Shown here: one piece after another, positions 16,903 through 59,788 of the stretch | Position numbering within the stretch: the stretch's first letter is position 1 | How the letters are laid out: each line of letters begins with the position of its first letter | NCBI GenBank assembly: GCA_028278625.1 | Contig: JANQDY010000155.1 | Span: forward strand, 1-60,511 | Reading direction: 5' to 3' | Source: Thermodesulfobacteriota bacterium | GTDB lineage: Bacteria > Desulfobacterota > DSM-4660 > Desulfatiglandales > Desulfatiglandaceae | Length of the DNA: 60,511 nucleotides | Notes under the pieces: model-generated | Seen by the model: only the letters and a program-made list of their open reading frames with translations | What the model was told of the DNA's origin: nothing | Database searches by the model: none | Program-made: the position numbers and the translations under genes

Positions 16903-16919
16903 ATCGTCTAAAAGATGAT
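16903..16919. promoter_or_regulatory. 17-bp palindromic operator (site 1)
   Basis: ATCGTCT-AAA-AGATGAT, flanked by A and T tracts, 127 bases upstream of the methyltransferase start. One of six related dyads in this window (7-bp arms, 3-bp AT spacer) that precede corrinoid-methyl and signalling operons. Binding by the encoded NarL/LuxR-type regulators is inference. Confidence 0.65.
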
Positions 16920-16988
16920 TTTAAAGAAAAAAGCAGATGATTTTGCGGGCTTTAAGCGTGGAAATCATTAATGTGCTGATCTCAGGTG

Positions 16989-17016
16989 AAAAACGGCATG
17001 TGGGATCACCCGTTTA
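16989..17016 (-). terminator. Possible terminator after the radical SAM gene
   Basis: On the - strand AACGG-GTG-ATCC-CAC-(ATG)-CCGTT forms an 8-bp stem with a 3-base bulge, running into TTTTT, exactly at the stop codon of the radical SAM gene. It is modest in strength. Confidence 0.4.
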
Positions 17017-18960
17017 GCAGCGGTTTGGGAAGGATTCTGCTGCCTCATTAAGTGTGCTGAGAAGGGTCGGTCCCTCCAAAACGCCGTAGGCCGCCACGGC
17101 GATGCGGCTTTCTTTTGTTTCCGCGACCAGTGACCGGATTCGGTCCAATCCCTCCCGGGTCAGGTGGTATTTTTTGTTTCGATCTCTGCGGGTCCAGCCC
17201 TTTGAGATGGTGATCTGAGCCACTTCATCAAAGCTTCTGGAGAGTGTAAACGCGTAACCAAAATTGCCGTGGCTGTTTCTCAGATACTTGGGAACCTGGC
17301 CGGCGGTCGCCTTTCTCGCGAGCAGAGCGAGAATCTCATTTTTGCGCAAACCCTTGCCATGGTTTTCAAGAAAGAGTATCAGCATGATCCAGAAGCACTT
17401 GATGGGATGCGTTTTTTTGACTTTTGAACACCAGTCTCTCACCCGATGAAGAACCGTTTTGAGTCTGTTTCCGTCAACTTCATCGCCCGGATAGGTTTTG
17501 ACGAAAAAGGATGCGGATATATCCAGAAGACGAAAGGTTTTCTGTTTGATCTCTTCAAGATCCGGGTCATAGAGCGAATAGTCATAGGCCAACGGGTACG
17601 CCTTAAACCCTTTTCCGATGTGGGGTTTCAGCAACGGGGTTGGAATCTCTTTCAGGTTCCCTCTGGCCTTTAAAAGGGCATGGATGTCGGATCCGAAAAG
17701 TGGGAACGTATAGAGATGAACGTGTGCGGTCGATTCGCCGTTCCGGATACATGAAAGGGCCAGTGCCGCCGTAATCCCGGTGTCATCTACCGATGATTCC
17801 GGTGAAAAAAGCTGAACGCTTAAACGGGGAAGGATTCGGCCTTTTTGCAGCAGTTTTAGGGAACGGTTCATTTCAGAGACGGTGCAACCCCTCCGCATGC
17901 GCTTGCTCAATTCTTCGGTCAGTGCATCCGCTCCCAAAAAAGCCACTTTCATGTGTGTTTCACCCATTTTTCGGGTCAGTCTTTCCGTGAGCCCTTTGGG
18001 TCTTAAAAAGCATGAGTAGGTGATTTGACGGTTTGCTTTTCGGGTGACGGTTTGAAAGAAATCGCAGATTCTGAGGGCCCAGGTTTCGTTGATATTGAAA
18101 GTGTCGTCCCAGACATCCACAAATTCAACGGCCGGATTGTCTATGAGAATCTGGGCCAATTCATTTACAAAGTCATCGCCTTGAACGGCGCAGTGAAAAT
18201 TCTTTCCGAATTGGCTCGCAATGGCACAGAAGAGACATCCGCCTTTGGATTTCTTCGCCCAAATACACGCCCTTTGTAGGGTAATGGCGATGGTCTTTTC
18301 CCCAAGCCGGACAAAAGTGAAGATGTCCTTTTCTTTCAGAGGTACGGATAAAAACGGGGTGGATACAAGTGCCGCTCTTTTAGGAAGCCAAAAGGCCAGA
18401 TTGGGAATGGAGAGGAGTTTACTTAAATAGACGCGATCCCATTTGCGCGTCATGACCGTCTTATCCAGAACGGGCAGAAGTTCATAAAGGGTGTTCTCCG
18501 CTGCGCCCCGCACAATGAAATCAGGGGCGATATCCAACACTTGGTTGGCAAAGGTGACGTAGCGGTGTTCGAGGATATTCTTGTAGTTGTTGGAAGCTTC
18601 ATTCCCGCCTAAAATAATGGGGGCCGGGCAGATGTTCCTGAGACACCCGATCACTCTTGGCAGAGAATAGAGATTAACGGAGTAAGGAGCTGAAATGAGA
18701 ATGATATCCGATTCAGAGAACCCGATTTCAAGGAAGAAAGCGTTTAGAAAATCATACCCCTTTGTGGCCAACTCTTGAAGGGACATGTAAACACTTTCGG
18801 CCCCAATGGCCTCCCCGCAAATGGCCTCATAACCGGCAATCGAAACGATCTTCTTGAGACTTGAGCAGGCCAGGCTGTCCTGCCGGGTAAGGGTGATGAT
18901 TCCGATTTTTTTCATTGTGGTGTTCACGGGAATGTTTTTTAGCAATTGGGTGTGCGCCAT
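17014..18960 (-). CDS. B12-binding-type radical SAM protein of unknown substrate
   Basis: 648 residues from ATG 18960. The N-terminal part looks like a B12-binding Rossmann domain (IVSIAGYEAICGEA...ILISAPYSVNLYSLPRVIGCL...PIILGGNEASNN). The radical SAM region contains ACIWAKKSKGGCLFC, a Cys cluster with unusually wide first spacing (C-x8-x-C-x2-C) instead of CxxxCxxC, followed by barrel segments (VEFVDVWDDTFNIN, YSCFLRP, VAFLGADALTEEL). The C-terminal 150 residues include a winged-helix-like segment (GWTRRDRNKKYHLTREGLDRIR). It follows the response regulator after 10 bases. A link to methyl or cobamide sensing is inference. Confidence 0.72.
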   Translation of the reverse strand: MAHTQLLKNIPVNTTMKKIGIITLTRQDSLACSSLKKIVSIAGYEAICGEAIGAESVYMSLQELATKGYDFLNAFFLEIGFSESDIILISAPYSVNLYSLPRVIGCLRNICPAPIILGGNEASNNYKNILEHRYVTFANQVLDIAPDFIVRGAAENTLYELLPVLDKTVMTRKWDRVYLSKLLSIPNLAFWLPKRAALVSTPFLSVPLKEKDIFTFVRLGEKTIAITLQRACIWAKKSKGGCLFCAIASQFGKNFHCAVQGDDFVNELAQILIDNPAVEFVDVWDDTFNINETWALRICDFFQTVTRKANRQITYSCFLRPKGLTERLTRKMGETHMKVAFLGADALTEELSKRMRRGCTVSEMNRSLKLLQKGRILPRLSVQLFSPESSVDDTGITAALALSCIRNGESTAHVHLYTFPLFGSDIHALLKARGNLKEIPTPLLKPHIGKGFKAYPLAYDYSLYDPDLEEIKQKTFRLLDISASFFVKTYPGDEVDGNRLKTVLHRVRDWCSKVKKTHPIKCFWIMLILFLENHGKGLRKNEILALLARKATAGQVPKYLRNSHGNFGYAFTLSRSFDEVAQITISKGWTRRDRNKKYHLTREGLDRIRSLVAETKESRIAVAAYGVLEGPTLLSTLNEAAESFPNRC

Positions 18961-18970
18961 TCGCTTATGT

Positions 18971-19633
18971 TCAGAGATCCGGATCGACCAGCCCGAGTTG
19001 TATGGCAAAGTGAATCAGCTTGATTGATGATTCGGTCCCCAGTTTTTCCATGATTTTGGCCTTGTGGGATTTTATGGTGCTTACGCTGACACACAGCATT
19101 TCAGCAATCTGTCTCGTGGGATGACCTTCCGCAATGAGCTGAAAAACTTCTCTTTCCCGGTTGGAAAGCTGTTTGTAGAGTTCCGCTTTTGAAGACGTCT
19201 TGGCAGGGGAGAGGTATGCGGCGACCACTTTCTTTGAGATTGAGGGGCTCAGGAAGGTCTCGTTGTTGAGAGCCGCCCGGATCGCTTTGATAATGTCCCG
19301 GCCCCCGGCATCTTTCAGCAAATATCCGGACACGCCGCATTCCAGGAGTTCATGAATGTAGTGCTCATGGGAATACATGGAGAGGATGATGATTTTTGTT
19401 TCAGGGACCGTCTTTCTGATCCGTTTTGCTGCCTCGATACCGTTCATGCGCGGCATGGCAATGTCCATGATGAGGATATCCGGTTTCAATCTTTCGGCCT
19501 TTTCAATGGCGATTTGCCCATTTGTCGCTTCTCCAACGATTTTGAGATCCCGTTGCTCCTCCAGTAGACGGGCCAGCCCCTGTCGAACGATGGTATGGTC
19601 GTCCGCAAGCAAAATTCGAATGGGTTTAGACAT
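18971..19633 (-). CDS. NarL/FixJ-family response regulator
   Basis: 220 residues. A receiver domain with the acidic pair at DDH, phospho-acceptor Asp in DILIMDIAMPRMNG and the Lys of LLKDAG, followed by a LuxR-type helix-turn-helix (QLSNREREVFQLIAEGHPTRQIAEMLCVSVSTIKSHKAKIMEKLG, residues about 150-195). It overlaps the histidine kinase gene by 8 bases and is clearly its partner. NarL-type proteins bind paired 7-bp half sites, so it is the leading candidate for binding the six 7-3-7 palindromes in the window, one of which lies upstream of this signalling operon. Confidence 0.93.
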   Translation of the reverse strand: MSKPIRILLADDHTIVRQGLARLLEEQRDLKIVGEATNGQIAIEKAERLKPDILIMDIAMPRMNGIEAAKRIRKTVPETKIIILSMYSHEHYIHELLECGVSGYLLKDAGGRDIIKAIRAALNNETFLSPSISKKVVAAYLSPAKTSSKAELYKQLSNREREVFQLIAEGHPTRQIAEMLCVSVSTIKSHKAKIMEKLGTESSIKLIHFAIQLGLVDPDL

Positions 19634-21884
19634 CCTCTGCCTCCTCTCTGTGGGGTATTTTTATTCGAATGCGGGTGCCTTTGCCAGGCGTTGTGGTCAA
19701 TTGAAAGCTGCCGCCCAGAAAGGAACAGCGTTCCCGAATTCCCAGTAGGCCCAGACTTCTTTTGTTTTTAGCGATGACCTCGTCATCGAACCCCCTGCCG
19801 TTATCTTCCGCCGCGAAGACGATCCATGGGTAACTTCGAATGATGGAAAGCCTGAATTTGCTGGCGCCCGAATGCTTCAATGTGTTGGTGAGGGTTTCCT
19901 GGCTGAACCGGTATAAAATGGTTTCCATTTCCGGATCCAGCCGTTTGTCAAAACCGACCATGCTGAATTTGATCTTGAGGTTCGATTTATTCTCAATGTC
20001 CTTGAAATAGAGTTTCAGGGCCGGTTCGAGACCCAGATCGATGAGCAGGGTGGGATGAAGATTGTAGGACAGGCGCCTTATTTCCGAAGAGGTGCGGGTA
20101 ATCATTTTTCGAATCTCATCGATTTCGGACCGTATCCGCTGTTCATCGTCACGAAAGCTCTCCTCCAATCTGTCCAGTCCCAGTTTGACCGCCATCAGGG
20201 ATTGGCCCGCTTCATCGTGCAGTTCCTGGGCGATGCGGCGGCGTTCCTCTTCCTGGGTTTCGAAAAGCCGTTCAGTGAGTCGCCTCAATTCACGCCGGTG
20301 AAGGCGGATGGTTTGCATCAACCGTGCAATTTCAATGGGTCCTCCCAGAAAGTTGCCCAAAGACCCCAAGAGATGGATCTCATGCTGATTCAATTTCCGG
20401 GAATCGGAAATGTGAAATGCAAAAAAGCCGACGGCCCTCCCTTTAAAGGTAATGAGGAAACAGGAGAGCCATGGCACGGTAGCGCCGCCCACCGCATTGT
20501 ATCGCATTTTAAAAGAGGGGAAAGTGGGTTCCGGTTTCAGTGGAGAACTCTTTTCCATGAGGTATTGTCCCAGTTTGGCATCTCTGAAGATCCCTGCCAT
20601 GGGCTCGTCCGTCAACTGATCAGGAAGTCCTGATTTCGCTTGAAGCCTTATTTTCTGGGAGCTCTGGTCAATGAGGAAAAGTCCCCCGGATTTTAACTCC
20701 AATGTCTTCAGCACATCTTGAAGTGTCACTTTAAGGACATGATCCAAGTCGAGCGTATTGTTCAAGGCGACGGCGGTTCGGTTTAGAATGGAGAGTTCCC
20801 GGTTTCGCTCTTTGATGGTCCGTTCATAGTGTTTGCGGTGGGTGATATCCTTGACGATCCCTTCGTACTCCACTTCACGGGTTACAAAACTCTCATACCG
20901 TCTGCTTGAGATCAACGTATGAATGATCTTTCCGTCTCTTCTCTTGAAGTCCACTTCGTAATCTTTTGTGAAACCGTCCCGGTTGATGGTTTTAACAAAT
21001 CTGTCACGGTCTTTTGGATTCTTGTAGAGGTTTTTGATGTTCACCCGTTGGACCAGTTCCCTTATGTCCGAATACCCCATCAATTCGACGCCGGCCTGGT
21101 TCATGTCCAGAATATCGCCCCGCGGATTGGTGGTGTAGATCATGTCGTGGCTTCCCTCGAAAATGCGGCGGTATTTCCGTTCCCGGCGCAAAAGTTCCTT
21201 TTGCAGTTTTTTATGCTCAGTGATGTCTTTAAATATTTCAAGTCCGCCGGTGACCTGGCCGGAGGCATCTCTAAATGCCGAAGTGGAACAAATGATCGGT
21301 ATTTCCTGGCCGTCGATATTGGTGATGGCATATTCCCGGTTGTGGATATCCTGATTCTCTTCAACGGCACGCTTTAAGGCACAGTCGGATTCACAGATGG
21401 AGTTTTTGAAAACGTCTTTGCAGAACATGCCCACAGCGTCATCTGCGGGAAATCCCGTGATTTTCTCGGCAGCGGGATTGAAATAGGTGATCCGCCATTC
21501 CCGGTCAGTGGTGAAAAGACCATCGGGAATGCGATTTAAGATTTCAATGAAACTCTCTTCCTTCTGGTAGAGCCTTTCAAGGGCCTTGATGTTGTATGCA
21601 TGAATTTGATCCGCCAGAAATTGATTCCACCCTCCCGGGTAGAGTTCTCCTTTGGCTTTAAAATAGGAACAGTTCAGGCAATGGGGCAGTTTCCTGAAAA
21701 AATCCTCTTCCATGAAGCTGCCACAGTGGGTGTCGGGAATCAGCCAGCAGTCAGTGCGCTGTCGATCATGGGCAGGGCACAGGACGTTGTGACAGGATAG
21801 CAGTTTCCAACAAGGTGAATTGCTGAAATCGGTCTCTTCAAGGGGCGAGAGTTGGATGAGGTGACTTTCGAGCAACGAATTCAC
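19626..21884 (-). CDS. PAS-PAS-GAF sensor histidine kinase (HisKA_3)
   Basis: 752 residues from GTG 21884, which has AAAGGAG eight to ten bases upstream. N-terminal Cys-rich two-CW-like module (CWKLLSCHNVLCPAH, then CWLIPDTHC and HCLNCSYFK), two PAS domains (about 115-235 and 245-355), a GAF domain (about 375-525), then a HisKA_3 dimerisation domain (RRRIAQELHDEAGQSL, phospho-His in ELHDE) and an HATPase domain (DNGRGFD, GLLGIRERC). No membrane helix, so it is a cytoplasmic sensor; the Cys module and PAS domains suggest redox or metal/small-molecule input. It overlaps a V4R protein gene by 47 bases and the response regulator by 8. Confidence 0.9.
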   Translation of the reverse strand: MNSLLESHLIQLSPLEETDFSNSPCWKLLSCHNVLCPAHDRQRTDCWLIPDTHCGSFMEEDFFRKLPHCLNCSYFKAKGELYPGGWNQFLADQIHAYNIKALERLYQKEESFIEILNRIPDGLFTTDREWRITYFNPAAEKITGFPADDAVGMFCKDVFKNSICESDCALKRAVEENQDIHNREYAITNIDGQEIPIICSTSAFRDASGQVTGGLEIFKDITEHKKLQKELLRRERKYRRIFEGSHDMIYTTNPRGDILDMNQAGVELMGYSDIRELVQRVNIKNLYKNPKDRDRFVKTINRDGFTKDYEVDFKRRDGKIIHTLISSRRYESFVTREVEYEGIVKDITHRKHYERTIKERNRELSILNRTAVALNNTLDLDHVLKVTLQDVLKTLELKSGGLFLIDQSSQKIRLQAKSGLPDQLTDEPMAGIFRDAKLGQYLMEKSSPLKPEPTFPSFKMRYNAVGGATVPWLSCFLITFKGRAVGFFAFHISDSRKLNQHEIHLLGSLGNFLGGPIEIARLMQTIRLHRRELRRLTERLFETQEEERRRIAQELHDEAGQSLMAVKLGLDRLEESFRDDEQRIRSEIDEIRKMITRTSSEIRRLSYNLHPTLLIDLGLEPALKLYFKDIENKSNLKIKFSMVGFDKRLDPEMETILYRFSQETLTNTLKHSGASKFRLSIIRSYPWIVFAAEDNGRGFDDEVIAKNKRSLGLLGIRERCSFLGGSFQLTTTPGKGTRIRIKIPHREEAEDV

Positions 21885-22455
21885 AATAGGAATCTCCTTT
21901 TGCACGGCAAAATGGCTCTTCGGCCAGAAAGGTAAAACATCCGTCCGGATAGTCCTCTCCATATAGCAGATCCATAAAGGCACCGGTAACGCCTCGGAGC
22001 ATATAACACTTTCCTGAGGTGCTCTTACCGTATCGTTCCATATAGCCACCTGCCTCGTAAGAATCGTTCACGCGGATAACCAGCTTTTCATGGGGCATGA
22101 GTTCCGTGACTTTCAAATCGCCCCACCCAAAGGCAACGGCCACGGCTGTAAAACCCTCAATTTGATCGTCCGTTTCTTCAATCATGGGTGCCACCAGTTC
22201 GTCCCATTCCCAGGAATTGCGGATTCCCTGGAAAGTGGCATATCCGCATTCCTGTGCGGCTTTGATGAGGAGGTCTTCCGATTCGTTGGCCCTCTCTTTT
22301 CCCAACAGTTTTTCAAAATCGAAGCAGAGTCTATTATAGTAGTGGATTGAAAAGAGGGAAAGATAGACGCCAAAAAGGGGAATGATGCCTTTTGATTCCC
22401 TGATGATGCTTCCTTCCATTACCGCATGGATGATCTTATTGCCGTCGATTGTCAC
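21838..22455 (-). CDS. V4R (4-vinyl reductase-like) domain protein
   Basis: 205 residues from GTG 22455 with GGGAGG upstream. The C-terminal part (RGVTGAFMDLLYGEDYPDGCFTFLAEEPFCRAKGDSYCEFVARK) has the V4R signature, a small-molecule and metal-binding domain with two or three Cys that is common in regulators of aromatic and methyl metabolism. It overlaps the histidine kinase gene, so it probably feeds a ligand signal to that kinase. It resembles the neighbour at 22543-23076 in architecture but not closely in sequence. Confidence 0.75.
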   Translation of the reverse strand: MTIDGNKIIHAVMEGSIIRESKGIIPLFGVYLSLFSIHYYNRLCFDFEKLLGKERANESEDLLIKAAQECGYATFQGIRNSWEWDELVAPMIEETDDQIEGFTAVAVAFGWGDLKVTELMPHEKLVIRVNDSYEAGGYMERYGKSTSGKCYMLRGVTGAFMDLLYGEDYPDGCFTFLAEEPFCRAKGDSYCEFVARKSPHPTLAP

Positions 22456-22542: not shown

Positions 22543-23076
22543 TCATGGTACACTGGCGGTTGCATCGAAAATACAATCGCCTTTTTGTACCATTTTGCAC
22601 TGTACTTCTTCGACCTGATAATGGCCGATGGGTCTGTTGAAAAGAACTTCCAGAACGCCGGCAATCCAGCCTCTGGTAAAATGACAACCGGGCGTCTTGC
22701 GACGTCCGTGTTTTGCAAGCCAGCCCGTCACATGATGGCTGGCGCTGCTGATAATTCTTCCACCAATGGGTCCCACGTTTTGAAAATGAATAATGCCCAG
22801 GCCGGAATTCTGGTAAAGAACGGAGACCATTTCCAGCCTTGATTTCAGGGTTTTGATTTGGCTGTAATGCTTGAGAATCGGTTTGAAACCGTCGTATACA
22901 GCTTCTTCGGCGGAACGGTAAAGGAGTTGAACCCCTTTTTCACCCAGGACGTCTTCCAGCGTTTTTTGAAGATTGATGTTGTAATGATGGCAGTGCATGG
23001 TGACCGGTTGGCCGGAAAGCACCATCCGGTGTCCCTTGCGCCCCAGTTCATTTCTCCAATCAAGCTGGACAGTCAT
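22543..23076 (-). CDS. V4R-domain-like protein, first gene of the signalling operon
   Basis: 177 residues. The first half (HCHHYNINLQKTLEDVLGEKGVQLLYRSAEEAVYDGF) and the C-terminal TRGWIAGVLEVLFNRPIGHYQVEEVQCKMVQKGDCIFDA follow the V4R/heme-NO-binding-associated pattern: a helical part, then a beta-rich end with two Cys. His and Cys residues (MHCHHYN) could bind metal. It is 87 bases upstream of the second V4R gene. Together with the kinase and response regulator they form a likely ligand-sensing relay. The ligand is unknown. Confidence 0.7.
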   Translation of the reverse strand: MTVQLDWRNELGRKGHRMVLSGQPVTMHCHHYNINLQKTLEDVLGEKGVQLLYRSAEEAVYDGFKPILKHYSQIKTLKSRLEMVSVLYQNSGLGIIHFQNVGPIGGRIISSASHHVTGWLAKHGRRKTPGCHFTRGWIAGVLEVLFNRPIGHYQVEEVQCKMVQKGDCIFDATASVP

Positions 23077-23264
23077 TGCTCTGCGCCGTATTTTTCAATG
23101 ATATTGACAGATTAACTCTCAATTATAGCGGAACAACGGCAATCCGTCAAATGAAAAAGAACGCCCGTGATGAAACCGTGCGGGTGGCGCCTCCTCTTGC
23201 GATTCAGTTGCCGAGGCATGTATGATGGTTCAGCCCATTAAGGCAGCGCTTGCCCATTATGGAT

Positions 23265-23281
23265 ATCGTCCAAAGGACGAT
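23265..23281. promoter_or_regulatory. 17-bp palindromic operator (site 2)
   Basis: ATCGTCC-AAA-GGACGAT, a perfect dyad, 189 bases upstream of the V4R/kinase operon (-) and 171 bases upstream of the CobW gene (+). It could serve both divergent units and would give autoregulation if the response regulator binds it. Confidence 0.7.
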
Positions 23282-23451
23282 TTTTTTGTGAATTGAGACG
23301 GTTTTTCAGAATGATCGGTCCATGGTGCCCGTTTGTTCCCTATTCCGTTGACACATCCTGAACCTAGGGAATATAAATTCCCCTGAAAAAGCCTGGATGA
23401 CATCATCCTTTGTTACTTGTAACCCCTTATTTTTCTAAGGAGCTACCCGAA

Positions 23452-24507
23452 ATGAAAGAGAAACCCCATAAAAAGTCGAATCAGAAGGCTAGTATTGTAC
23501 TGCTTGCCGGATTCCTGGGATCCGGCAAGACCACGCTGCTCAAGCGGATTCTGTCTTGGGAGACGGATCTGTCAGACACCGTTGTGCTGGTAAATGAATT
23601 CGGGGACATCGGTATTGATGGCGCTTTGTTAAAGGACTCAGCGTCGGATGTGATTGAATTGACCAGTGGATGCATCTGCTGTACGCTCAGTGCCGACCTG
23701 AGACGCTCCCTTGAAAAGATTTGGAAGCGGTTTCACCCCCAGCGCATTTTCATAGAGTCTTCCGGCGTTGCCGACCCTGCCGCCGTGGTGTCGGCGTTGA
23801 CTGACCCGCTTCTGACGCGTTCTATGCGCATTGACAAGATTTTAACGGTTTTGGACGCGGATTTCTGGGAAGCCAGGGAGGCGTTCGGACCGCTCTTCTT
23901 CAACCAACTGGAAAAGGCGGATCTGATTCTCCTAAACAAAATCGACACCCAGGAAAAAGAGAAGATTGCGGTTTACCTTAAAGAGATGCATGAAGTTTTA
24001 TCTGGTACTCAAATTGTCCCCACCATCCAGTGCAATATTGATCCTGCAACGCTATGGGCCGAGAAAGCGCGCAAAGACCGCTTTGAGCGTGCGCCTGTTC
24101 ATCTGTTTAAGGAGACTCTGCCCGAGATGGGAGATTCACATACATCCGGCCAGCATGATCATCATCAGCACCTTGATGAGATGCACAGGGAAGAGGAGCA
24201 TGGGGAAGAAGGGCATGGGGATCACAATGGGCACCATACCAGTCATTTTGTGACGTTTTCCTTTGCCAGCGACAAAGTGGTGAAAGAGTCCTGTTTCAGG
24301 AAATTTGTGGATGGACTTCCCTTTGAACTCTTCAGGCTTAAAGGGCCGGTCAAGTTTGAAGATCGAAGTGTGCTCATCAACTTTGTCGGGGGCAAAAGTG
24401 AGTGGACACCTTGGGAAGGTGAGCCTGACACGCGGTTGGCATTCATCGGGTGGACGGTGGATGAGGCAGCTATTTTGAACCAATTGAAAGAATGTATCAT
24501 TGATTAG
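23452..24507 (+). CDS. CobW-family GTPase with His-rich segment
   Basis: 351 residues from ATG 23452 (AAGGAG upstream). G domain: Walker A AGFLGSGKTTLL, NEFGDIGIDG switch, metal motif SGCICCTL (CxCC), ESSGVADPA and LLNKID. A His/Asp/Glu-rich stretch about residues 220-265 (HDHHQHLDEMHREEEHGEEG) precedes the CobW C-terminal domain (HFVTFSFASDK...FELFRLKGPVKF). This is the COG0523 metallochaperone architecture; the metal could be zinc, cobalt or another. It is followed after 11 bases by a SUMF1-like gene. Delivery of zinc to UroD-fold methyltransferases is an attractive but unproven idea. Confidence 0.88.
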   Translation: MKEKPHKKSNQKASIVLLAGFLGSGKTTLLKRILSWETDLSDTVVLVNEFGDIGIDGALLKDSASDVIELTSGCICCTLSADLRRSLEKIWKRFHPQRIFIESSGVADPAAVVSALTDPLLTRSMRIDKILTVLDADFWEAREAFGPLFFNQLEKADLILLNKIDTQEKEKIAVYLKEMHEVLSGTQIVPTIQCNIDPATLWAEKARKDRFERAPVHLFKETLPEMGDSHTSGQHDHHQHLDEMHREEEHGEEGHGDHNGHHTSHFVTFSFASDKVVKESCFRKFVDGLPFELFRLKGPVKFEDRSVLINFVGGKSEWTPWEGEPDTRLAFIGWTVDEAAILNQLKECIID

Positions 24508-40814: not shown

Positions 40815-40828
40815 GGCAGTATTTAAAA

Positions 40829-42591: not shown

Positions 42592-42855
42592 TCACAATTT
42601 GATTTCCACCACTTGACGAATCAATTCCGCGTCGTGTTCCTTGTTTCTGATGGCCCCTGCCACGCATCCGTTTAAGTGCTCTTCCAGGATCACAATGCCC
42701 AGGGACCGCATGGCACCGATGGTCGCGGAAATCTGTTTTAAAACATCCATGCAATCCCTGTCTTCACCGACCATTTTCTTGATGCCGCGCACCTGACCTT
42801 CTATCCGGCTCAGCCGGTTAACGTACTTCAATTTGTCGCTGCCGCATAGTGTCAT
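42592..42855 (-). CDS. CsoR/FrmR-family metal-sensing repressor
   Basis: 87 residues from ATG 42855, which has AGGAG at 42863; an upstream in-frame ATG at 42876 lies inside the operator and lacks a ribosome binding site. All-helical family with NRLSRIEGQVRGIKKMVGEDRDCMDVLKQI and EEHLNGCVAGAI; the Cys, His and Cys match the Cu(I) ligand set of CsoR, though related sensors use similar ligands for Ni/Co or persulfide. It heads the DUF2162-ExbB-DUF2149-CobN operon (39 bases to the next gene) and likely represses it through the palindrome just upstream. Confidence 0.87.
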   Translation of the reverse strand: MTLCGSDKLKYVNRLSRIEGQVRGIKKMVGEDRDCMDVLKQISATIGAMRSLGIVILEEHLNGCVAGAIRNKEHDAELIRQVVEIKL

Positions 42856-42868
42856 TTTCTGATCTCCT

Positions 42869-42885
42869 ATACCCATGGGGGGTAT
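42869..42885. promoter_or_regulatory. CsoR-type operator
   Basis: ATACCC-ATGGG-GGGTAT: a G-tract dyad with A/T ends, as typically bound by CsoR/RcnR-family repressors, 13-30 bases upstream of the repressor start codon. Autoregulation is expected. Confidence 0.75.
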
Positions 42886-42914
42886 TAGTATGTGTCTTGG
42901 CGGAGGATGTGTCC

Positions 42915-42931
42915 ATCATCCAAAGGTTGAT
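42915..42931. promoter_or_regulatory. 17-bp palindromic operator (site 6, diverged)
   Basis: ATCATCC-AAA-GGTTGAT, 60 bases upstream of the CsoR gene start at 42855, the same 7-3-7 form as the other five sites. A second weaker dyad of similar sequence follows at 42932-42951. The operon may thus answer both to metal and to the methyl/corrinoid regulator. Confidence 0.5.
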
Positions 42932-43041
42932 CATCGACCCTTTCGAGGTTGATATTTTTGAGCAGAAAGGCTGATTTTCAATGCATTGTAAAACAAAAGG
43001 TGGTCTATGCGCAACTACCTTTTTTCACTCAGGTAAATGGA

Positions 43042-46013: not shown

Positions 46014-47759
46014 CTATTGGGTGTCGCTTTGTACCGCCACCAGCATTCGGTTCAAGAACTGATCCGGGGGGAGGAAATCGACCAGTCGAAGGTCCTTTCG
46101 TTCCTCACCTTCCGGTGCCAGAAACACAACGGTCGGAACCCCTTTCACCTTGTAACGGCTCAGTACCTCTTTATGCAAAAAGTTACGCTTTTTTGTCAAA
46201 TCTACTTTGACCATAACAAAGTCCCGTTCGGCTTTGTCGACCACCTGTTGGTCGTGAAAGGTGATGTCTTCCAACTCCCGGCATGGCGCGCACCAGTCCG
46301 CATAGAAATCAATAATGACCGGTTTTTTCAGTTCTTGGGCCCGTTCCAGCACTTCACGGGAGTAGGGTTGCCAGGTGACGCCGGGACCTTTCATCAACCA
46401 GTGGCCCACGAGGAGGACGGCCAGGACAAGGCTTGCCGTTCCCACAAGGGCCCTTACCCATCTGAAAATCCGGAAGCCGTTTTGGGTTTGATCAATCCAC
46501 CCCAGGTGAAGACCGGCGGCAACAGCAACCCCCGCCAGTGCGAGGACCCCAATGGTTTCCGGTAGGGCCGGTCTGATAAAGTAGGCGGCCATCCCCAGGA
46601 GAACCCAGCCCATCAGCTTCCGAACCCACAGCATCCACTCTCCTGAACGGGGAAGTTTTTCAATTTGGCCCGAAAAGAGGGCCAGGAAAAAGAGCGGAAA
46701 CCCGAGTCCAAAGCTCAAGGTGAAAAAGACCAAAAATCCGAGCCACGGGCTTCCCATGCCTGCCACCCAGGTTAAGAGCCCCAAAACAAAAGGACCAATG
46801 CAGGGGGCGGCGACCACGCCCAGGGTGATACCCATGAAAAGCGTGCCCAAATATCCTGCGTAAGACTTTGACGCTGCCCGGGTAAGGCCCGAGGGGAGTC
46901 TTAATTCCCAGAATCCGAACAGGCTGGAGGCGAAGAAAAGCATGACCGCCGCGATGATGATGAGGACTATCGGGTTCTGCAGCATAGACCCCATAAGGCC
47001 TCCTGTTAGCGCGGCGGTAACTCCGAGCAATGAATTGGTCACGGAAAGGCCACCGATGTAGCACATACCGTGAACGGTGAGGTTTCCCCGATTCTGTCCG
47101 CTCTTTCCGCCAAAATAGGAAACGGTTATGGGGATCAGCGGGTAGACGCAAGGGGTGAGATTAAGGGCGATACCGCCCGCGAATATGCCCAAAAGGGTCC
47201 AGATCATGGCCCAGCCGTGAAGCGGCCCGGGCTCATCCGGTTTTTCGAGTGGTTCTGATAGTCCCGCCGGTCTGCTTAGAACGGGCAAGCCCCTCTTAAG
47301 CCAATCTGGATAACCTTCTGGATAGCGATAAACCTTGTTAAACCCTAATGACGCAGCTACCCGAGCCGCCGAGTCGCTTCGGACTCACGAAAGCCCTGCT
47401 CAGAAAAATACGATAAACCGGTTCTTGTCGGATCCAAGTAATGTTTTTAGGGCGTCTTTTTTCTTCCATCTTGCAAACCAGGTGGGTTCCATGGGGAAGT
47501 TGACGGCCCCCTTGATGTGCCCCGAGCGGTATTCCCACTCCTGGCGGGTGTCCACCAGCAGGAGATCTTTATGATTCTCCCTATAAACCTTTTCCAGTGC
47601 ATCCGTATTGATCAGTTGATATCCGCCACTTTGAGCCTCGGCAATCACGTCTTCAAGGGTGGCTTTTTTTGGCGCCACCGAGCGGTTGGTAAACCACAAA
47701 AGCCCGATGGTTATGGCAATGGCCGCGAGTGCTAAAAGGCTTGTTCTGGTTCGATTCAT
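46014..47759 (-). CDS. Rhodanese-DsbD-thioredoxin fusion, predicted double selenoprotein (Sec120, Sec125)
   Basis: 581 residues when TGA at 47402-47400 and 47387-47385 are read as Sec. Order: membrane helix (about 6-26), rhodanese domain (LLLVDTRQEWEYRSGHIKGAVNFPMEPTW), the loop FF-U-AGLS-U-VRSDSAARVAASLGF where relatives have C-x-G-x-x-C, VYRYPEGYPDWLKRGLPV, then a DsbD-type membrane domain (LNLTPCVYPLIPITVSYFGG; AAPCIGPFVLG), and a C-terminal thioredoxin domain with YADWCAPCRE. Reading is continuous in one frame and the protein is intact after the TGA codons. DsbD moves electrons across the membrane; the rhodanese could supply or receive persulfide sulfur. Confidence 0.87.
47353..47369 (-). 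promoter_or_regulatory. bSECIS-like hairpin after the second TGA
   Basis: GCGGCT-CGGGT-AGCTGC (6 bp, one G-U pair), 15 bases after the second TGA and 30 bases after the first. A shorter stem (GAGTC/GACTC) lies between. Either could serve both codons. Confidence 0.5.
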
Positions 47760-47795
47760 TCTTTTCCCCTTGAAATGGCGGAAAGCAGCACCGGG

Positions 47796-48251
47796 CTATA
47801 TCTTCATCTCTCTTTTCAGTTTCGTGAGCAGGAATTCCGCTCCTGATCTCGAAAGGCCGCAGCCCTCCGCCAAATGATGGGGCTCGGTTTCGCCTGTCTT
47901 ATTGACAAAAGAGACGACTTCCTCTTCCAACTCCTCAAGCCAGTTTTCAAAGAGCAAAAAGATCTCCGGGTCAACGATTGTGGTCAGCTGCTTTGAGCGG
48001 CTCACCTTTTCCACCATGCTTTGACACATATCCGTTGGATCGACACCTTCGTCCATGCAGGTCGCCATTCAAAGGTGAACCAGGCTGGAGACTTTTTCAT
48101 TGGAAGCGTCTCCCACCAGGTTTGATATGACCGTGAGACGGGTTTCTTCTTCCAAAAGGGGAAATACCTTCTTAAGTATCCCGGAAAGGAATGATGCCGC
48201 TTCTTCCGGCGCCATTTTTAGGATCAGGTCTTCAATTTTCTTAATATCCAT
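47796..48251 (-). CDS. Candidate selenoprotein of unknown function (Sec61) or two adjacent small genes
   Basis: Two short frames (60 and 90 codons) lie in the same frame, separated only by TGA at 48071-48069 followed at once by ATG. Read as one protein of 151 residues: MDIKKIEDLILKMAPEEAASFLSGILKKVF...SSLVHL-U-MATCMDEGVDP. The second part has no ribosome binding site, and a partial stem-loop (CGAC.CT and AGG.GTCG) follows the TGA. The C-terminus (LAEGCGLSRSGAEFLLTKLKREM) looks like a helix-turn-helix. Sec near two Cys (UxxxC, then DMC) would suit a redox or metal site. The evidence is weaker than for the other Sec genes because I know no Cys homologue. Confidence 0.6.
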
Positions 48252-48270
48252 GAACTTCCGTCTCCAAAAA

Positions 48271-48606
48271 TCAAAATGAGGTTCGTCTGCTGAGGAGGGC
48301 CGTGGCCAACACCTCCAGTTGTTCAATAATGCCAAAAACACCTTTGTCCGCTATTTGATAATCAATAAAAGGGCCCCTTCGCTCAACATTCACCAGGAGT
48401 GTTCGTTTCAGTTCTTTGAGATGATGTGAGACAAGGGGTTGAGAAAGCTCCAGGGATTCCACTATTTGGGAAACGGATCTTTTTCCATCCATGAGACAGA
48501 GCAAAATGCGCAGTCTGTTTTCATCGGTAAAACTCTTGGCAAGATCTGCAATGAGATTGAGACGGCCATGAAAATGATCTGCCGGCTCAGTTTTTGGATG
48601 CGTCAC
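48271..48606 (-). CDS. ArsR/SmtB-family repressor
   Basis: 111 residues from GTG 48606 with GGAGGAAAG upstream. Winged helix: DENRLRILLCLMDGKRSVSQIVESLELSQPLVSHHLKELKRTLLVNVERRGPFIDYQI. A single Cys (in LLCL), so it is not the two-Cys persulfide-sensor type. It heads the operon with the candidate Sec protein, rhodanese-DsbD, the small selenoprotein, GcvH-like protein, CbiR and more, and likely represses it. The dyad at 48693-48718 would be its operator. Confidence 0.88.
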   Translation of the reverse strand: MTHPKTEPADHFHGRLNLIADLAKSFTDENRLRILLCLMDGKRSVSQIVESLELSQPLVSHHLKELKRTLLVNVERRGPFIDYQIADKGVFGIIEQLEVLATALLSRRTSF

Positions 48607-48718: not shown

Positions 48719-48779
48719 TGATTGGTGTGTCAAGGCATAAACCATCCGAAACCGTATTGCCTTCACTTTTTTTTAAAAA

Positions 48780-48796
48780 ATCGTCCTTTGGACGAT
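48780..48796. promoter_or_regulatory. 17-bp palindromic operator (site 3)
   Basis: ATCGTCC-TTT-GGACGAT, a perfect dyad preceded by a run of A and followed by TTTATAC, 99 bases upstream of the DUF2284 start. It is identical to site 2 read on the other strand. Confidence 0.72.
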
Positions 48797-48894
48797 TTAT
48801 ACTCTCACCAGAGTAGGATAAGGAGGGAAAGGGGCATAGGGCTTTGGTATATCTTGCCCTGAACCCAAGAAACTTGAAAATCGGGAGGTTCCTT

Positions 48895-49401
48895 ATGGCC
48901 GAAGATTATGTCAAACTGATTGACAAGTGTTTGGAGATGGGCGCGGAGGGCGCAAAATTGATGAAGACCGATCAAGTGGTTTTTGATCCCAGGTCGCATC
49001 TCAAATGCCGGTTTGGATGCAATCGCTGGGGAAAATTCTGGACCTGCCCGCCCCACAATCGTATTTCCCAGGAAACCTTCATGGAATCTTTCGGCAAATA
49101 CAAGACCGCGTTGGTCATCAAGACATCCAATGCCAAGCTGGGGCAGGATATCTCCGTGGAGATCGAAAAGGAGGCCATGCTTTCTTACGGGGCCGTTTTT
49201 GCCTTTGCCCTGGCCTTGTGCGTGCAATGTGATGAATGCGCATACCCTGAGCCCTGTCGATTCCCTCATCTGGCGCGTCCTTCCATGGATGCCTACGGTG
49301 TTGATATCGGCAAAACCGTGGGGCGACTGAATTTTGATGTGAATTTTGATGAGAAAGGCGAGCTGCTTCCCGCCTGGTATTCAATGGTCCTTTTGGACTG
49401 A
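48895..49401 (+). CDS. DUF2284 metal-binding protein, second copy
   Basis: 168 residues from ATG 48895 (GGGAGG upstream), chosen over an upstream GTG without ribosome binding site. Motifs: KCRFGCNRWGKFWTCPPHN and CVQCDECAYPEPCRFPHLARPS, the DUF2284 Cys pattern, as in the copy at 11780. The number and spacing of Cys fit an Fe-S cluster or metal site. It is followed after 29 bases by a DUF1638 gene. The palindrome 99 bases upstream places it in the same regulon as the methyltransferases. Confidence 0.85.
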   Translation: MAEDYVKLIDKCLEMGAEGAKLMKTDQVVFDPRSHLKCRFGCNRWGKFWTCPPHNRISQETFMESFGKYKTALVIKTSNAKLGQDISVEIEKEAMLSYGAVFAFALALCVQCDECAYPEPCRFPHLARPSMDAYGVDIGKTVGRLNFDVNFDEKGELLPAWYSMVLLD

Positions 49402-49430: not shown

Positions 49431-50060
49431 ATGAGTGTGGGGGTTATCTGCTGCCGGGTTCTGGAAGCGGAGATGCGGACGGTCGTTAAGGATTTCCCGG
49501 AGGTCTCATGTTTTGAGGTAATGGAATGGGGACTCCATATTGAGCCGGACCTGCTCCTTCACACCCTGACGGAACGAATTCTGTTGCTTCAGGAAAATGT
49601 CTCGGCCATTGTTCTCGGTTATGGCCGTTGTCAGACCTTGGACAGACTTCGGGACGATTTTTTAGTGCCGGTCTTTCGTCCACACGGGGATGACTGTATT
49701 GGTGTGCTTCTGGGACAGGAACCATACGAAAAAGCCCTTCTGGAAGAGGGGGGGACATGGTTTTTTACGCCGGGATGGACCGAGCTTGGGATGGAGTTTA
49801 TATTTCATGAACTTCAATTGAGCCCCCTGGCGGAAAGGGGCCTCGATCCCATGCAATTGGCACACCGCATGTTGAAAGATTTTACCCGGGGCCTATTCGT
49901 TGAGGCCGGGGGGGAAGATGTAAGAAGGCTTGAGCAGAAGGCAAAAGAGATATCAAAGACCTTTGGTTTGAGGTTTGAAAAAAGGCTTGGGACCCTTTCC
50001 AGTTTGAGAAGCACTTTAAACGAGGCGGTAAACGCCGCGTCATTAAATGGTGATCGATGA
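49431..50060 (+). CDS. DUF1638 domain protein
   Basis: 209 residues, beginning VGVICCRVLEAEMRTVV and followed by PDLLLHTLTERILLLQ, VLGYGRCQTLDRL and VFRPHGDDCIGVLLG, the DUF1638 pattern. The conserved Cys, His and Asp residues (CCR, GRC, GDDC) suggest a metal or corrinoid contact. DUF1638 genes are common beside corrinoid methyltransferase genes in anaerobes and methanogens; function unknown. It ends opposite the methyltransferase at 50247, with a strong hairpin in between. Confidence 0.8.
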   Translation: MSVGVICCRVLEAEMRTVVKDFPEVSCFEVMEWGLHIEPDLLLHTLTERILLLQENVSAIVLGYGRCQTLDRLRDDFLVPVFRPHGDDCIGVLLGQEPYEKALLEEGGTWFFTPGWTELGMEFIFHELQLSPLAERGLDPMQLAHRMLKDFTRGLFVEAGGEDVRRLEQKAKEISKTFGLRFEKRLGTLSSLRSTLNEAVNAASLNGDR

Positions 50061-51345: not shown

Positions 51346-51942
51346 TTCTACCCTCGGCGTCAAGTGGCCTTAGGACGGCTTTTGGATATCTAACGGTCGA
51401 ATTTTGGGCAATAACCGGTCCAAAAGAGACTTTTGAAAAATATTGTTGATTGTTTCAAGAATAGGGAATAAGGTGAGACGGCTTGTGATGTACCGGCTTA
51501 TCATTCCAGGGCTTCAATAGGAAAAAGGGAGATTTTGTCCCATTTGGGGCATTTTTACCCGTGACAATTGAAAACGGTCCATTTTTATCTAAACAATTTC
51601 AGAGACTCTAACGCTTCCAACAGGGAAAATCGTCTGTTTTTTTTGTAAAATCATTCTTTGGACGATTTTCAGAGCATCAAGGTCCCATATATATATTTGC
51701 ACAATATATATTCTCTTACTTCGGATGTGAATCCTGAAATAATCCTTTGTGGTTTTTCAACCAAGAGGTTTTTGTGAATCACATTTTTCGGAGAAAATGT
51801 GGAGACAGGGCTCTGGAGTTCATTGGGTCCCCATTTTGCGCGGCGAATAAACGGATGCCGAAGAAAGGAGGTGCTGACGCAAAACGATCGATTTGGATGT
51901 GAAATCTGATGTCAACCCAAATGGTAAGAAAGGAGAGTCCAA
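51346..51942. other. Divergent regulatory region between two methyltransferases
   Basis: No gene is supported. The stretch is AT-rich and contains the 17-bp palindrome at 51650 and a half site (AAAATCGTCTG at 51627). Other than these I see only runs of T and short AT repeats (ATATATATTTGCACAATATATAT near 51692 is one imperfect dyad). Promoters for both units must lie here. Confidence 0.5.
51650..51666. promoter_or_regulatory. 17-bp palindromic operator (site 4)
   Basis: ATCATTC-TTT-GGACGAT, with AAA and TTT flanks, 277 bases upstream of the Sec-methyltransferase (+) and 351 bases upstream of the methyltransferase at 51299 (-). One arm is perfect and the other has two changes. Confidence 0.6.
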
Positions 51943-52977
51943 ATGGCGAAGCAAATGCTGATTGACGCCTATCGAGGCAAAAAAACACCCAAACCACCAT
52001 GGGTTCCTTATGCCGGTGTTCATTGCGCTTTTCTCATCAATGAACCGGCCGACAAAGTGCTGAAGGACCCCGAATTGTTGGCAAAGAGTGTTGTCTATGC
52101 GGCAAAACGGTACAAAGCGGACGGTATCCCCCTGATATTTGATCTGTCCGTTGAAGCCAACGCCGTCGGTTGCGATCTGAAATGGTGGGAGGATAACGTC
52201 CCTTCCGTAAAAACCCATCCCTGTTCCGACAAAACGCCTGCGGAGGCCGGTTTACAGATGCCCACCAAAGATACGGGCCGTTGGCCGGTTCTTTTTGAAG
52301 CGGCAAGGATTGCAAAGCCGCAACTGGATGAGCTGGACTGCTGCCTCATGGGTCTTTTCTGCGGACCCCTGACCCTGGCATCTCATTTGGCGGGTGTTCG
52401 AATCTTCACCGATGTCTACAAGAACAAGGAATTTGCCGCTGACGTCTGCAAATTCGCGGGAGAAGTGGGCGCCAAGTCTGCTGAATTCTATGCGGAAATG
52501 GGTTGCGATATCATCGCCAACGTGGATCCGGTGGCTTCTCAGATCAGGCCTGAGACTTTCCGGGAATACGTGACGCCCAACAGCCAGGCGGCAAACAAGG
52601 TGATCCATGATGCCGGTATCACGTCATCATTCTTCATCTGCGGGGACGCGACCAAGGTGATGGAAGAGGTCTGCAAGGTGGGGACCCACGGATTTGCCAT
52701 TGATGAGCAGATGAACATGAACTTCATCCGCGATCTTGCCCGCAAGTACGGCGTGGGCTTCGGCGGAAATCTGAAGCTGACATTGGCCCTCAGTTTGGGC
52801 CTGCTGTCCTCAAGGGAAGATGCCATCGTGAGTCTTGCTGCCGGAGGTCAGCACGGCTATACCTTCGCACCTGGGTGAGACATGCCATACGATGTTCCGG
52901 TGGAACATATGGATCAGGCAATCGAAGCCCGCGACTGGTATGAGCAGTATTATGCCAAGTACCCGGATTCTTGGTAA
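51943..52977 (+). CDS. UroD-fold methyltransferase, predicted selenoprotein (Sec312)
   Basis: 344 residues with TGA 52876-52878 as Sec312. The frame continues without a break to TAA 52975: YTFAPG-U-DMPYDVPVEHMDQAI...AKYPDSW. In the relative at 32919 the same place reads LAPGCEFP, so Sec replaces the third zinc-ligand Cys. At the usual His-x-Cys site the protein has FFICGDAT, Phe instead of His, so the metal site differs. Strong start (AAGGAG) and a perfect SECIS-like hairpin downstream of the TGA support translation. It opens the + strand operon that ends with YkgJ. Substrate unknown; Sec could give a more nucleophilic or lower-pKa metal ligand. Confidence 0.92.
52892..52908 (+). promoter_or_regulatory. 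bSECIS-like hairpin of the Sec-methyltransferase
   Basis: ATGTTCC-GGT-GGAACAT, a perfect 7-bp stem with a 3-base loop starting GG, 13 bases after the TGA. It fits the known bacterial SECIS position and loop rule closely. Confidence 0.82.
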
Positions 52978-58922: not shown

Positions 58923-58956
58923 TGAGGCCCATGAACCGTAAAACGGGAAGAAGAAA

Positions 58957-59712
58957 ATGATCGATGGCATGAAACTACAGGAGGCGGTGCTCAAAAACCG
59001 GAAGGCTTTAAAAGCGCTCAAAAAAGCATATGAGGCGCTTCCTGAGACCGTCTGCAATTGTGATACCATCGGTGTTTGTTGCGTTTCCCTGCCGGAAATG
59101 ACGGTTCTGGAAGCCCTATTGTGGATGGAAGCCATTTCAGGGTTCCCCGATCATGAACAAATGTCCCTTCTTAACAGGTTTGTCCATTTCTATCTGACCG
59201 GTCCTGTTTATCATACCGGTTGTCCCTTTTGTGTTGAAGGTTCCTGTTCCAACTATGACCTAAGGCCCTTTGCATGTCGCGCATACGGATTATGGAGCCG
59301 CAAGTTGGGGAAGGAACAGACGCGAAAAAACCGCGACGCCCAGAAAGCCCTGGTGGAGATGTGGGAGAGATTCGGCGTCCCCATTCCGGAAGAGCGCCTT
59401 TTGACGGAAATGGAATACTGCCAAAAGGTCCAAACACGGAATCCCGTTTCCATCTCGGATCATGTTCTGTTGGGCGTACTTGAAACGGTTTATCTTTTGA
59501 GCAAACCGGTGGCGGACTTGCAAAAATCCTTTGAAACCGCCTACCAGTCTGATTTCAGCTACCTTGTGGCCTCCCTTCTCCTGGGGCAGAAAAAGGCGTT
59601 TCTGGGAAAGTATGCCGTTGTGAAAGAGATTGTCACAAAGGGGACGGAAGACCGGCTGAACAGGTTTCTGAAGGCTGTCTCTCCGGAAAAATGGCCTTTT
59701 AATCTCTCCTGA
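58957..59712 (+). CDS. YkgJ-family Cys-cluster protein
   Basis: 251 residues. The N-terminal half carries CNCDTIGVCCVSLPEMT and HTGCPFCVEGSCSNYDLRPFACRAYGLW, the zinc/iron-chelating Cys pattern of YkgJ-like proteins (CxxCx..C..RP..CR). The C-terminal half is helical (VLLGVLETVYLLSKPV; DLQKSFETAYQSDFSYLVASLLLG). It is the last gene of the operon before the intergenic region with site 5. YkgJ proteins are thought to bind an Fe-S cluster or metal; function unproven. Confidence 0.82.
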   Translation: MIDGMKLQEAVLKNRKALKALKKAYEALPETVCNCDTIGVCCVSLPEMTVLEALLWMEAISGFPDHEQMSLLNRFVHFYLTGPVYHTGCPFCVEGSCSNYDLRPFACRAYGLWSRKLGKEQTRKNRDAQKALVEMWERFGVPIPEERLLTEMEYCQKVQTRNPVSISDHVLLGVLETVYLLSKPVADLQKSFETAYQSDFSYLVASLLLGQKKAFLGKYAVVKEIVTKGTEDRLNRFLKAVSPEKWPFNLS

Positions 59713-59771
59713 TTTCCCACGTATTAAACCATCTTGGTAATCCGGCAAAATCAGCCGAAGGGGTGAGGAAA

Positions 59772-59788
59772 ATCAACCTTTGGACTAT
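59772..59788. promoter_or_regulatory. 17-bp palindromic operator (site 5, diverged)
   Basis: ATCAACC-TTT-GGACTAT, with GAAA and TTTTC flanks, 88 bases upstream of the mtrH-like gene. Same 7-3-7 form; arms have three differences from the perfect sites. Confidence 0.55.

What the first reader, a model, noticed from the sequence alone, without database searches (positions are those of the whole stretch)
16903..59788. A 17-bp palindrome marks a methyl/corrinoid regulon at six sites
Seen: ATCGTCC-TTT-GGACGAT (or its variants) at 16903, 23265, 42915, 48780, 51650 and 59772, all in upstream regions of operons and, in this reading, none inside a gene. The downstream units are methyltransferase, signalling, CobW, CobN/CsoR, DUF2284/DUF1638, Sec-methyltransferase and MtrH. 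Known: NarL-type proteins bind paired 7-bp half sites. Inference: the kinase/regulator pair at 19-22 kb, or the PAS-LuxR at 36 kb, controls all of them in response to a methylated substrate.
Basis: partly seen in the sequence, partly recalled or inferred. Interest (0 to 1): 0.9.

Follow-up and report, generated by a model that had tools for sequence, protein, structure and literature searches.

The report
Three-part switch for methyl-transfer genes
A short mirrored DNA word, usually with a third copy of its half two DNA turns away, sits in front of methyl-transfer and vitamin-B12-related genes in a group of anaerobic bacteria and is most likely the landing site of one sensor-driven activator encoded among those genes.

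Summary
Confirmed and extended. All six sites are real and intergenic. A weight matrix trained on 45 sites from other genomes ranks exactly these six first in the window (26.7-58.4 bits; best of 100 shuffles 21.9). The element is asymmetric and names its target: UroD methyltransferase-corrinoid protein-RACo, V4R-kinase-regulator, CsoR-CobN, DUF2284-DUF1638, Sec-methyltransferase, MtrH.

In 389 Desulfobacteria genomes the tripartite operator tracks the NarL-type kinase: 33 of 42 operator genomes against 19 of 347 others. A matrix from the six window sites alone finds it before 48 of 51 MtrH genes; two exceptions lack kinase and regulator, one has too little DNA held. ArsR (TsoR) and PAS-LuxR do not track it. 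Relatives carry it before pylB, acsE-like/acsD and TSCPD-SMC genes.

Best reading: a NarL/FixJ two-component activator of a methyl/corrinoid regulon. Binding, activation and signal are untested; ten of 42 operator genomes showed no regulator hit.

The parts
16900..16922 (-). Operator palindrome (half-sites 2 and 3) pointing at UroD-type methyltransferase 15697-16776 / corrinoid protein 14946-15605 / RACo activator 12741-14801
   Evidence: 58.4 bits with the matrix from other genomes; same place in relatives L107, L110-L112, L125
16935..16944 (-). Third half-site AAAATCATCT, 22 bp from the palindrome
   Evidence: 10 of 10 matches
23262..23284 (-). Operator palindrome pointing at V4R 22543-23076, kinase 19626-22049, regulator 18971-19633 (putative autoregulation); CobW 23410-24507 lies divergently
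   Evidence: 49.5 bits on - strand, 13.6 on + strand; a weaker site between V4R and CobW in L118
23296..23305 (-). Third half-site AAAACCGTCT, 21 bp from the palindrome
   Evidence: 9 of 10 matches
42912..42934 (-). Weak operator palindrome upstream of CsoR-type repressor 42592-42876 and the genes down to CobN 36915-40832
   Evidence: 26.7 bits, of which 10.0 from the third half-site
42947..42956 (-). Third half-site AATATCAACC, 22 bp from the palindrome
   Evidence: 8 of 10 matches
48777..48799 (+). Perfect operator palindrome pointing at DUF2284 48895-49401 and DUF1638 49431-50060; TsoR (ArsR family) lies divergently; no third half-site
   Evidence: 37.4 bits on +, 19.7 on -
51626..51635 (+). 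Third half-site AAAATCGTCT, 21 bp from the palindrome
   Evidence: 10 of 10 matches
51647..51669 (+). Operator palindrome pointing at the Sec-methyltransferase operon 51943 onwards
   Evidence: 48.9 bits; same target in L161, L184 and L190
59747..59756 (+). Third half-site AAAATCAGCC, 22 bp from the palindrome
   Evidence: 9 of 10 matches
59769..59791 (+). Operator palindrome pointing at MtrH (59876 onwards)
   Evidence: 49.0 bits; operator before 48 of 51 MtrH copies
18971..19633 (-). NarL/FixJ-type response regulator, proposed binder of the operator
   Evidence: Response_reg + GerE; closest solved sequences VraR and NarL; in 32 of 42 operator genomes
19626..22049 (-). PAS sensor histidine kinase (HisKA_3) with a Cys-rich N-terminal stretch, partner of the regulator
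   Evidence: two-CW domain match below its cut-off; distribution
22543..23076 (-). V4R-like protein beside the kinase, possible ligand-binding input
   Evidence: Pfam V4R match below cut-off; found in 25 of the 27 kinase-bearing loci
15697..16776 (-). MtaA/CmuA-like methyltransferase (UroMT_A)
   Evidence: URO-D; MtaA/CmuA-type models below cut-off
14946..15605 (-). Corrinoid protein
   Evidence: B12-binding domains
12741..14801 (-). RACo-type corrinoid activator
51943..52977 (+). UroD-type methyltransferase with an in-frame UGA (52876-52878), probable selenocysteine, followed by 32 open codons and a stop
59876..60511 (+). MtrH-type methyltransferase, cut by the window end

Best explanation
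The palindrome is two thirds of a tripartite operator, AAAATCRTCY - N11/12 - AAAATCRTCY - N3 - RGACGATTTT, bound by the NarL/FixJ-type response regulator encoded at 18971-19633 once its partner kinase (19626-22049) phosphorylates it. The inverted half nearest the gene runs into a -35-like TTTTCA with an AT-rich -10-like stretch about 17 bp further on, so the bound regulator would act as a class II activator. It would switch on methyltransferases, the corrinoid protein and its activator, the Sec-methyltransferase, MtrH, DUF2284/DUF1638, a CsoR-CobN unit and its own operon: a methyl/corrinoid regulon. Shown: the operator, its fixed geometry, its targets, its conservation and its co-occurrence with the kinase. 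Inferred: binding, activation, autoregulation and the signal (perhaps a methylated sulfur or selenium compound).
For: Matrix tests in both directions. Third half-site at 22 bp in 34 and at 21 bp in 5 of 52 sites. A pattern scan of genome contigs for the palindrome gave 14 stretches: of the 3 from Desulfobacterota/deltaproteobacteria two lie before MtrH and one on a contig with TsoB-, GcvH- and DUF1638-like genes; 0 of the 11 others has a homolog of a window gene in the held stretch. Tripartite pattern with at most 2 mismatches: 42 of 389 genomes; kinase in 33 of these 42 and in 19 of the other 347 (Fisher p 2.5e-26). Regulator at 54-79% identity in 32 of the 42. 49 of 57 tripartite sites with 0-1 mismatch lie within 350 bp upstream, same strand, of a homolog of a methyl-cluster gene of the window. 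Operator before MtrH in 45 of 45 kinase-bearing cases with the upstream DNA held; the two MtrH copies without it are in genomes lacking kinase and regulator. The stretch ST[IV]K[ST]H in the HTH is kept in 32 of 32 regulators printed.
Against: No binding or expression data. Ten of 42 operator genomes show no regulator at E<=1e-60: G170 (contig ends at the kinase) and G288 (regulator in two pieces) have the kinase; G202, G368, G001 and G306 have convincing sites but no regulator above 43%; at G108 and G341 no methyl gene was found and G126 and G107 were not examined, so these four may be chance sites. G235 has an operator before MtrH and no regulator above 38%. The 38 control genomes were drawn from those with neither operator nor kinase match, so 0 of 38 for the regulator is largely built in; the unselected comparison is the one. 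Of 16 examined tripartite sites with 2 mismatches only 6 lie before such a homolog. Genomes share ancestry, so p-values overstate independence. Site 48777 has no third half-site. The -10 signal is modest (mean 2.92 of 6 TATAAT matches at +43, next best 2.69 at +41).
Confidence: 0.78

Rival explanations
1. The operator belongs to another regulator of the window: TsoR (ArsR family, beside 48777), CsoR (beside 42912) or the PAS-LuxR protein at 36 kb.
For: TsoR and CsoR sit directly next to a site; PAS-LuxR has a GerE-type HTH.
Against: TsoR over its cut-off is in 5 of 42 operator genomes and 5 of 38 operator-free ones, and none of 10 TsoR loci has the palindrome beside the gene (one 16/20 match about 1 kb away in L208). 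Full-length PAS-LuxR orthologs are in 3 of 42 operator genomes and 0 of 38. No CsoR match appears in the loci; CsoR was not searched genome-wide.
Confidence: 0.06
2. The NarL-type regulator binds the element but represses, or acts both ways, rather than activating.
For: Half-site 3 touches the inferred -35 hexamer, where a repressor could also act.
Against: Fixed placement upstream of a -10-like stretch; three half-sites upstream of the promoter resemble NarL-family activators such as ComA.
Confidence: 0.12
3. The palindromes are bidirectional terminators or other structural inverted repeats (A-tract, stem, short loop, T-tract).
For: A/T-flanked inverted repeat with a 3-nt loop; 23262 runs into a T-tract.
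Against: The third half-site at fixed spacing cannot be part of such a hairpin; sites sit between divergent genes at 23262, 48777 and 51647; the 55 examined sites with a listed homolog lie 29-347 bp before its start. No folding run was made.
Confidence: 0.02

Closest known systems
ComA of Bacillus subtilis (NarL/FixJ-type regulator with an inverted repeat plus further elements)
   Same: An inverted repeat plus further elements of the same half-site nearby, for a regulator with the same type of HTH (passages of PMC4797271; family placement of ComA partly recalled)
   Different: Different half-site (TTGCGG), 4-nt spacer, further elements downstream of the inverted repeat; here 10-bp half-sites, 3-bp spacer, extra half-site upstream
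NarL of Escherichia coli
   Same: Same family by domains and by sequence match to a solved structure
   Different: NarL's 7-2-7 heptamer arrangement (recalled, not from a call) is not what is seen here; the curated NarL model is far below its cut-off (160 against 250 bits)
mec cassette of anaerobic dichloromethane degraders
   Same: A two-component system encoded with CmuA/MtaA-type methyltransferases and a corrinoid protein (passages of PMC9768040)
   Different: Other bacteria; a PocR-domain kinase is described; no operator is given in the passages seen
Type 1 mlp gene clusters (Kountz and Balskus)
   Same: UroD-family methyltransferases, corrinoid protein and activator; His-Cys-Cys type sites (PMC10418091: outline, Results section and passages)
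   Different: The three clusters described there in detail lack a folate methylase; here an MtrH gene shares the operator. The find call gave no occurrence of two-component or histidine kinase in the main text
Tso selenoprotein operon (TsoR, TsoA, TsoB)
   Same: Tso-type genes are in the window at 46014-48606
   Different: Its regulator TsoR does not track the operator

Membership tests
NarL/FixJ response regulators | Receiver domain plus C-terminal GerE/LuxR HTH | tested here: met
   Response_reg 9.5e-30 and GerE 4e-17; near full-length match to VraR and NarL chains
NarL/FixJ response regulators | Encoded with a HisKA_3-type kinase | tested here: met
   HisKA_3 3.3e-16 in the adjacent gene
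NarL/FixJ response regulators | Binds its operator when phosphorylated | not testable with these tools
   Needs protein and DNA
Named NCBIfam NarL-type equivalogs (MctR, NarL, UvrY) | Score over the curated cut-off | tested here: not met
   Best MctR 174 bits against 300
ComA-type multipartite operator | Inverted repeat plus a further half-site of the same word at fixed distance | tested here: met
   34 of 52 at 22 bp and 5 of 52 at 21 bp
ComA-type multipartite operator | TTGCGG half-site, 4-nt spacer, further elements downstream | tested here: not met
   AAAATCRTCY, 3-nt spacer, extra half-site upstream
ArsR/TsoR operator | The palindrome beside tsoR in other genomes | tested here: not met
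   0 of 10 TsoR loci with the palindrome beside the gene
Type 1 mlp gene cluster | Encodes at least an Mlp2 and an Mlp3 | not tested
   No tree or network was made

The most novel reading that the evidence does not exclude
One two-component system is the clade-wide master switch of corrinoid methyl transfer in the Desulfobacteria: through a single tripartite operator it controls substrate methyltransferases, corrinoid supply and activation, selenocysteine- and pyrrolysine-dependent parts (pylB) and the methyl branch of the Wood-Ljungdahl pathway (acsE-like/acsD), while exchangeable kinase N-termini adapt the same regulator and operator to different methyl donors.
Probability: 0.4. Interest if true: 0.75.

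Novelty: new member of a known kind. Interest (0 to 1): 0.64.

Why it matters
Corrinoid methyltransferase clusters of Desulfobacteria mostly have no known substrate. A shared operator that ties them to one kinase/regulator groups uncharacterised genes (TSCPD-SMC, DUF2284/DUF1638, Sec-methyltransferase, V4R-like protein) into one functional unit, gives a marker for that unit that can be read from a genome, and gives a direct route to the substrate: ask which methyl donor turns the kinase on.

Tried and rejected
A plain mismatch scan of the window is inconclusive on its own (7 against 3.17 expected), so matrices trained elsewhere were used. TsoR and PAS-LuxR were tested and not supported as general regulators; CsoR was only looked for in the loci. 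The B12-like protein at 17014-19008 was not seen in many operator-bearing stretches, such as L090-L092, L114-L116, L118 and L123, so it is unlikely to be the general binder. Terminator hairpins were considered and rejected on geometry; no folding run was made. Literature: searches turned up no described regulon or operator of this kind in the held library (one listed nothing; two listed one paper each, seen as listing only). Haft and Tolstoy 2025, which probably describes the Tso operon, is not held, so 'not described' is limited to this library. Plasmid records hold one relative of the regulator at E<=1e-50, 40% identical.

Corrections and dropped rows: MtrH was first translated one base out of frame (59877 instead of 59876; one search failed for that reason); MtrH positions stand, its identities there do not, and onwards use the right frame. 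Of the 56 palindromes at 16/20 or better in the loci, 45 went into the 52 aligned sites (with six window sites and L048); 11 were left out because they were not before a methyl gene, were cut by a contig end or lay close to another site, and 1 of these 11 has the third half-site. The matrix dropped L105 and the window sites (45 left); the -10 test used 51. Of 75 tripartite sites with at most 2 mismatches, one search examined 73 (those in G126 and G107 left out). In one search one of 51 MtrH copies (G226) has only 133 bp of upstream DNA held and shows no site. The genome lists for one search were typed by hand. Related genomes and a near-duplicate pair (L128/L129) are in the training set.
Full report
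1. Observation. Two are perfect 7-3-7 palindromes (23265, 48780); the other four have 2-3 mismatches. Allowing 3 mismatches, 7 matches are found where 3.17 are expected, so by that measure alone the weak sites would not stand. The independent test is decisive: a matrix from 45 sites collected in other genomes, none of them from the window, gives the six reported sites as the six best places of the window (58.4 to 26.7 bits). Beyond the same sites read on the other strand nothing reaches 8 bits, and the best of 100 Markov sequences is 21.9. By the gene calls used, all six lie between genes.

2. A search free of gene content. The extended palindrome AAATCRTCCWWWGGAYGATTT was sought in the whole genome-contig collection: 14 stretches. 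Three are from Desulfobacterota or deltaproteobacteria by their titles. Two of these lie before MtrH (L008, L014). The third, L002, lies on a contig with TsoB-, GcvH- and DUF1638-like genes, but its own downstream gene is beyond the contig end. In the 11 other stretches there is no homolog of a window gene (0 of 11), and the third half-site is absent in 10 of 11.

3. The operator has three parts. When 52 sites, chosen by palindrome score and position, are aligned and turned towards their gene, a further copy of the half-site appears upstream: 34 score at least 8 of 10 at exactly 22 bp and 5 others at 21 bp; at the other distances from 11 to 59 the count is 0 or 1, except 3 at 44 bp. By target it is present in 16 of 24 MtrH sites, 10 of 13 TSCPD sites and 6 of 6 UroMT_A sites. 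Eleven further palindromes in the same loci were left out of the alignment; 1 of them has it. In the window it is present at 16900, 23262, 42912, 51647 and 59769 and absent at 48777. It makes the element asymmetric and so names the target even between divergent genes: 23262 scores 49.5 bits towards V4R-kinase-regulator and 13.6 towards CobW; 48777 scores 37.4 towards DUF2284 and 19.7 towards TsoR. Downstream, TTTTCA overlaps the end of the third half and T/A enrichment appears at +43 to +49, which fits a -35/-10 pair with 17 bp between; the -10 signal is modest.

4. The targets. A tripartite pattern was sought in 389 genomes sampled from the class of G002, a Desulfotignum genome, that is Desulfobacteria. 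With up to 3 mismatches 61 genomes match; the reversed control pattern gives 9 matches in all 389. By my count the table lists 37 places with 0, 20 with 1 and 18 with 2 mismatches. Of the 57 with 0-1 mismatch, 49 lie within 350 bp upstream, on the same strand, of a homolog of a methyl-cluster gene of the window (MtrH, UroD methyltransferases, TSCPD-x52971-SMC, Sec-methyltransferase, corrinoid protein); of the 16 examined with 2 mismatches, 6 do. None of the 73 lies inside a homolog of a window gene. Among the remaining sites are pylB (508 bits against a cut-off of 348; L188), an acsE-like gene under its cut-off with acsD over one (L168; L169 looks alike but was not searched), a cobA-type adenosyltransferase under its cut-off (L199) and a methylmalonyl-CoA mutase B12-domain gene (L095). 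Others lie before transporter, PadR-like or unidentified genes (L129, L174, L175, L176, L178, L099, L180, L181), or at contig ends (L002, L113, L191). With a matrix from the six window sites only, 48 of 51 MtrH copies have the operator within 400 bp upstream (22.9 to 50.2 bits; best coding control 3.8, best of 510 shuffles 18.7).

5. The regulator. The kinase has a match in 52 of 389 genomes, 26 of them by orthologs of at least 57% identity. Tripartite operators with at most 2 mismatches occur in 42 genomes; the kinase is in 33 of these and in 19 of the other 347 (Fisher p 2.5e-26). Of those 19, 16 have an MtrH copy and all 16 have a site before it by the matrix. The regulator was sought in the 42 operator genomes and in 38 genomes drawn from those with neither operator nor kinase: 54-79% identity in 32 of 42; in the 38 one hit at 42%. 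Because of that choice the second figure is largely built in. TsoR over its cut-off: 5 of 42 and 5 of 38. Full-length PAS-LuxR: 3 of 42 and 0 of 38. Among MtrH copies, 45 of 45 in kinase-bearing genomes with the upstream DNA held have the operator; of 5 kinase-less genomes 3 have it (G202, G235, G368) and 2 do not (G046, G389); none of the five has a regulator above 42%. The kinases of the more distant group (41-48% identity) do not align to the N-terminal Cys-rich stretch, yet 15 of the 26 genomes outside the close group carry the operator; that argues that the operator belongs to the regulator and not to a particular sensor domain.

6. Results against. No experiment shows binding. Ten of 42 operator genomes gave no regulator hit; two of these have the kinase with the regulator cut off or split (G170, G288), four have convincing sites but no regulator above 43% (G202, G368, G001, G306), and four (G108, G341, G126, G107) may be chance sites. 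Contig numbers in the hundreds suggest fragmented assemblies, but gaps were not proven. Shared ancestry makes the p-values optimistic. The plain palindrome with at most 2 mismatches gives 55 sites in 26 kinase-bearing genomes (reversed control 2) against 16 in 26 kinase-free genomes (control 4).

7. Function of the regulon. The window's UroD-type enzymes at 15697 and 50247 carry HIC and PGC motifs of the His-Cys-Cys kind that Kountz and Balskus associate with sulfur or selenium methyltransferases (Results of PMC10418091); the one at 51943 has an in-frame UGA where those have the second Cys motif, followed by 32 open codons, probably selenocysteine. A methylated sulfur or selenium compound is therefore a reasonable guess for the donor, no more. 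In relatives of the distant kinase group an aldehyde dehydrogenase lies beside the MtrH operon (L136, L138, L140, L146), which may mean other donors in other species.

8. Known relatives. The regulator is a NarL/FixJ protein by domains and by the sequences of solved relatives VraR and NarL, but no named equivalog shown reaches its cut-off. ComA of B. subtilis is the closest precedent found for an inverted repeat with further half-sites (passages of PMC4797271). The mec cassette pairs a two-component system with CmuA-type methyltransferases (passages of PMC9768040). No description of this operator was found in the held library.

9. Verdict.

Noticed in passing
window 46014-48606: Tso selenoprotein genes: TsoR over its NCBIfam cut-off, TsoA- and TsoB-like pieces below theirs because they are split, apparently at in-frame UGA codons.
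   Followed up: partly
window 51943-52977: UroD-type methyltransferase read through an in-frame UGA, 344 residues in all.
   Followed up: partly
window 17014-19008: B12-binding/radical-SAM-like protein with only weak family matches, found beside the regulator in several relatives.
   Followed up: no
window 43986-44888: CbiR cobamide-remodelling enzyme over its cut-off; with CbiZ- and CobN-type genes it may point to corrinoid scavenging.
   Followed up: no
   Followed up: partly
L004 4650 and 6425: Two perfect copies of the extended palindrome within 1.8 kb in a Clostridia MAG, without a window homolog in the stretch; possibly an unrelated regulon or repeat.
   Followed up: no
L007 1375 and L012 7583: The same extended palindrome, GAAATCGTCCATTGGACGATTTC, in a Pseudooceanicola and a Pseudoruegeria genome, without window homologs in the stretch.
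   Followed up: no
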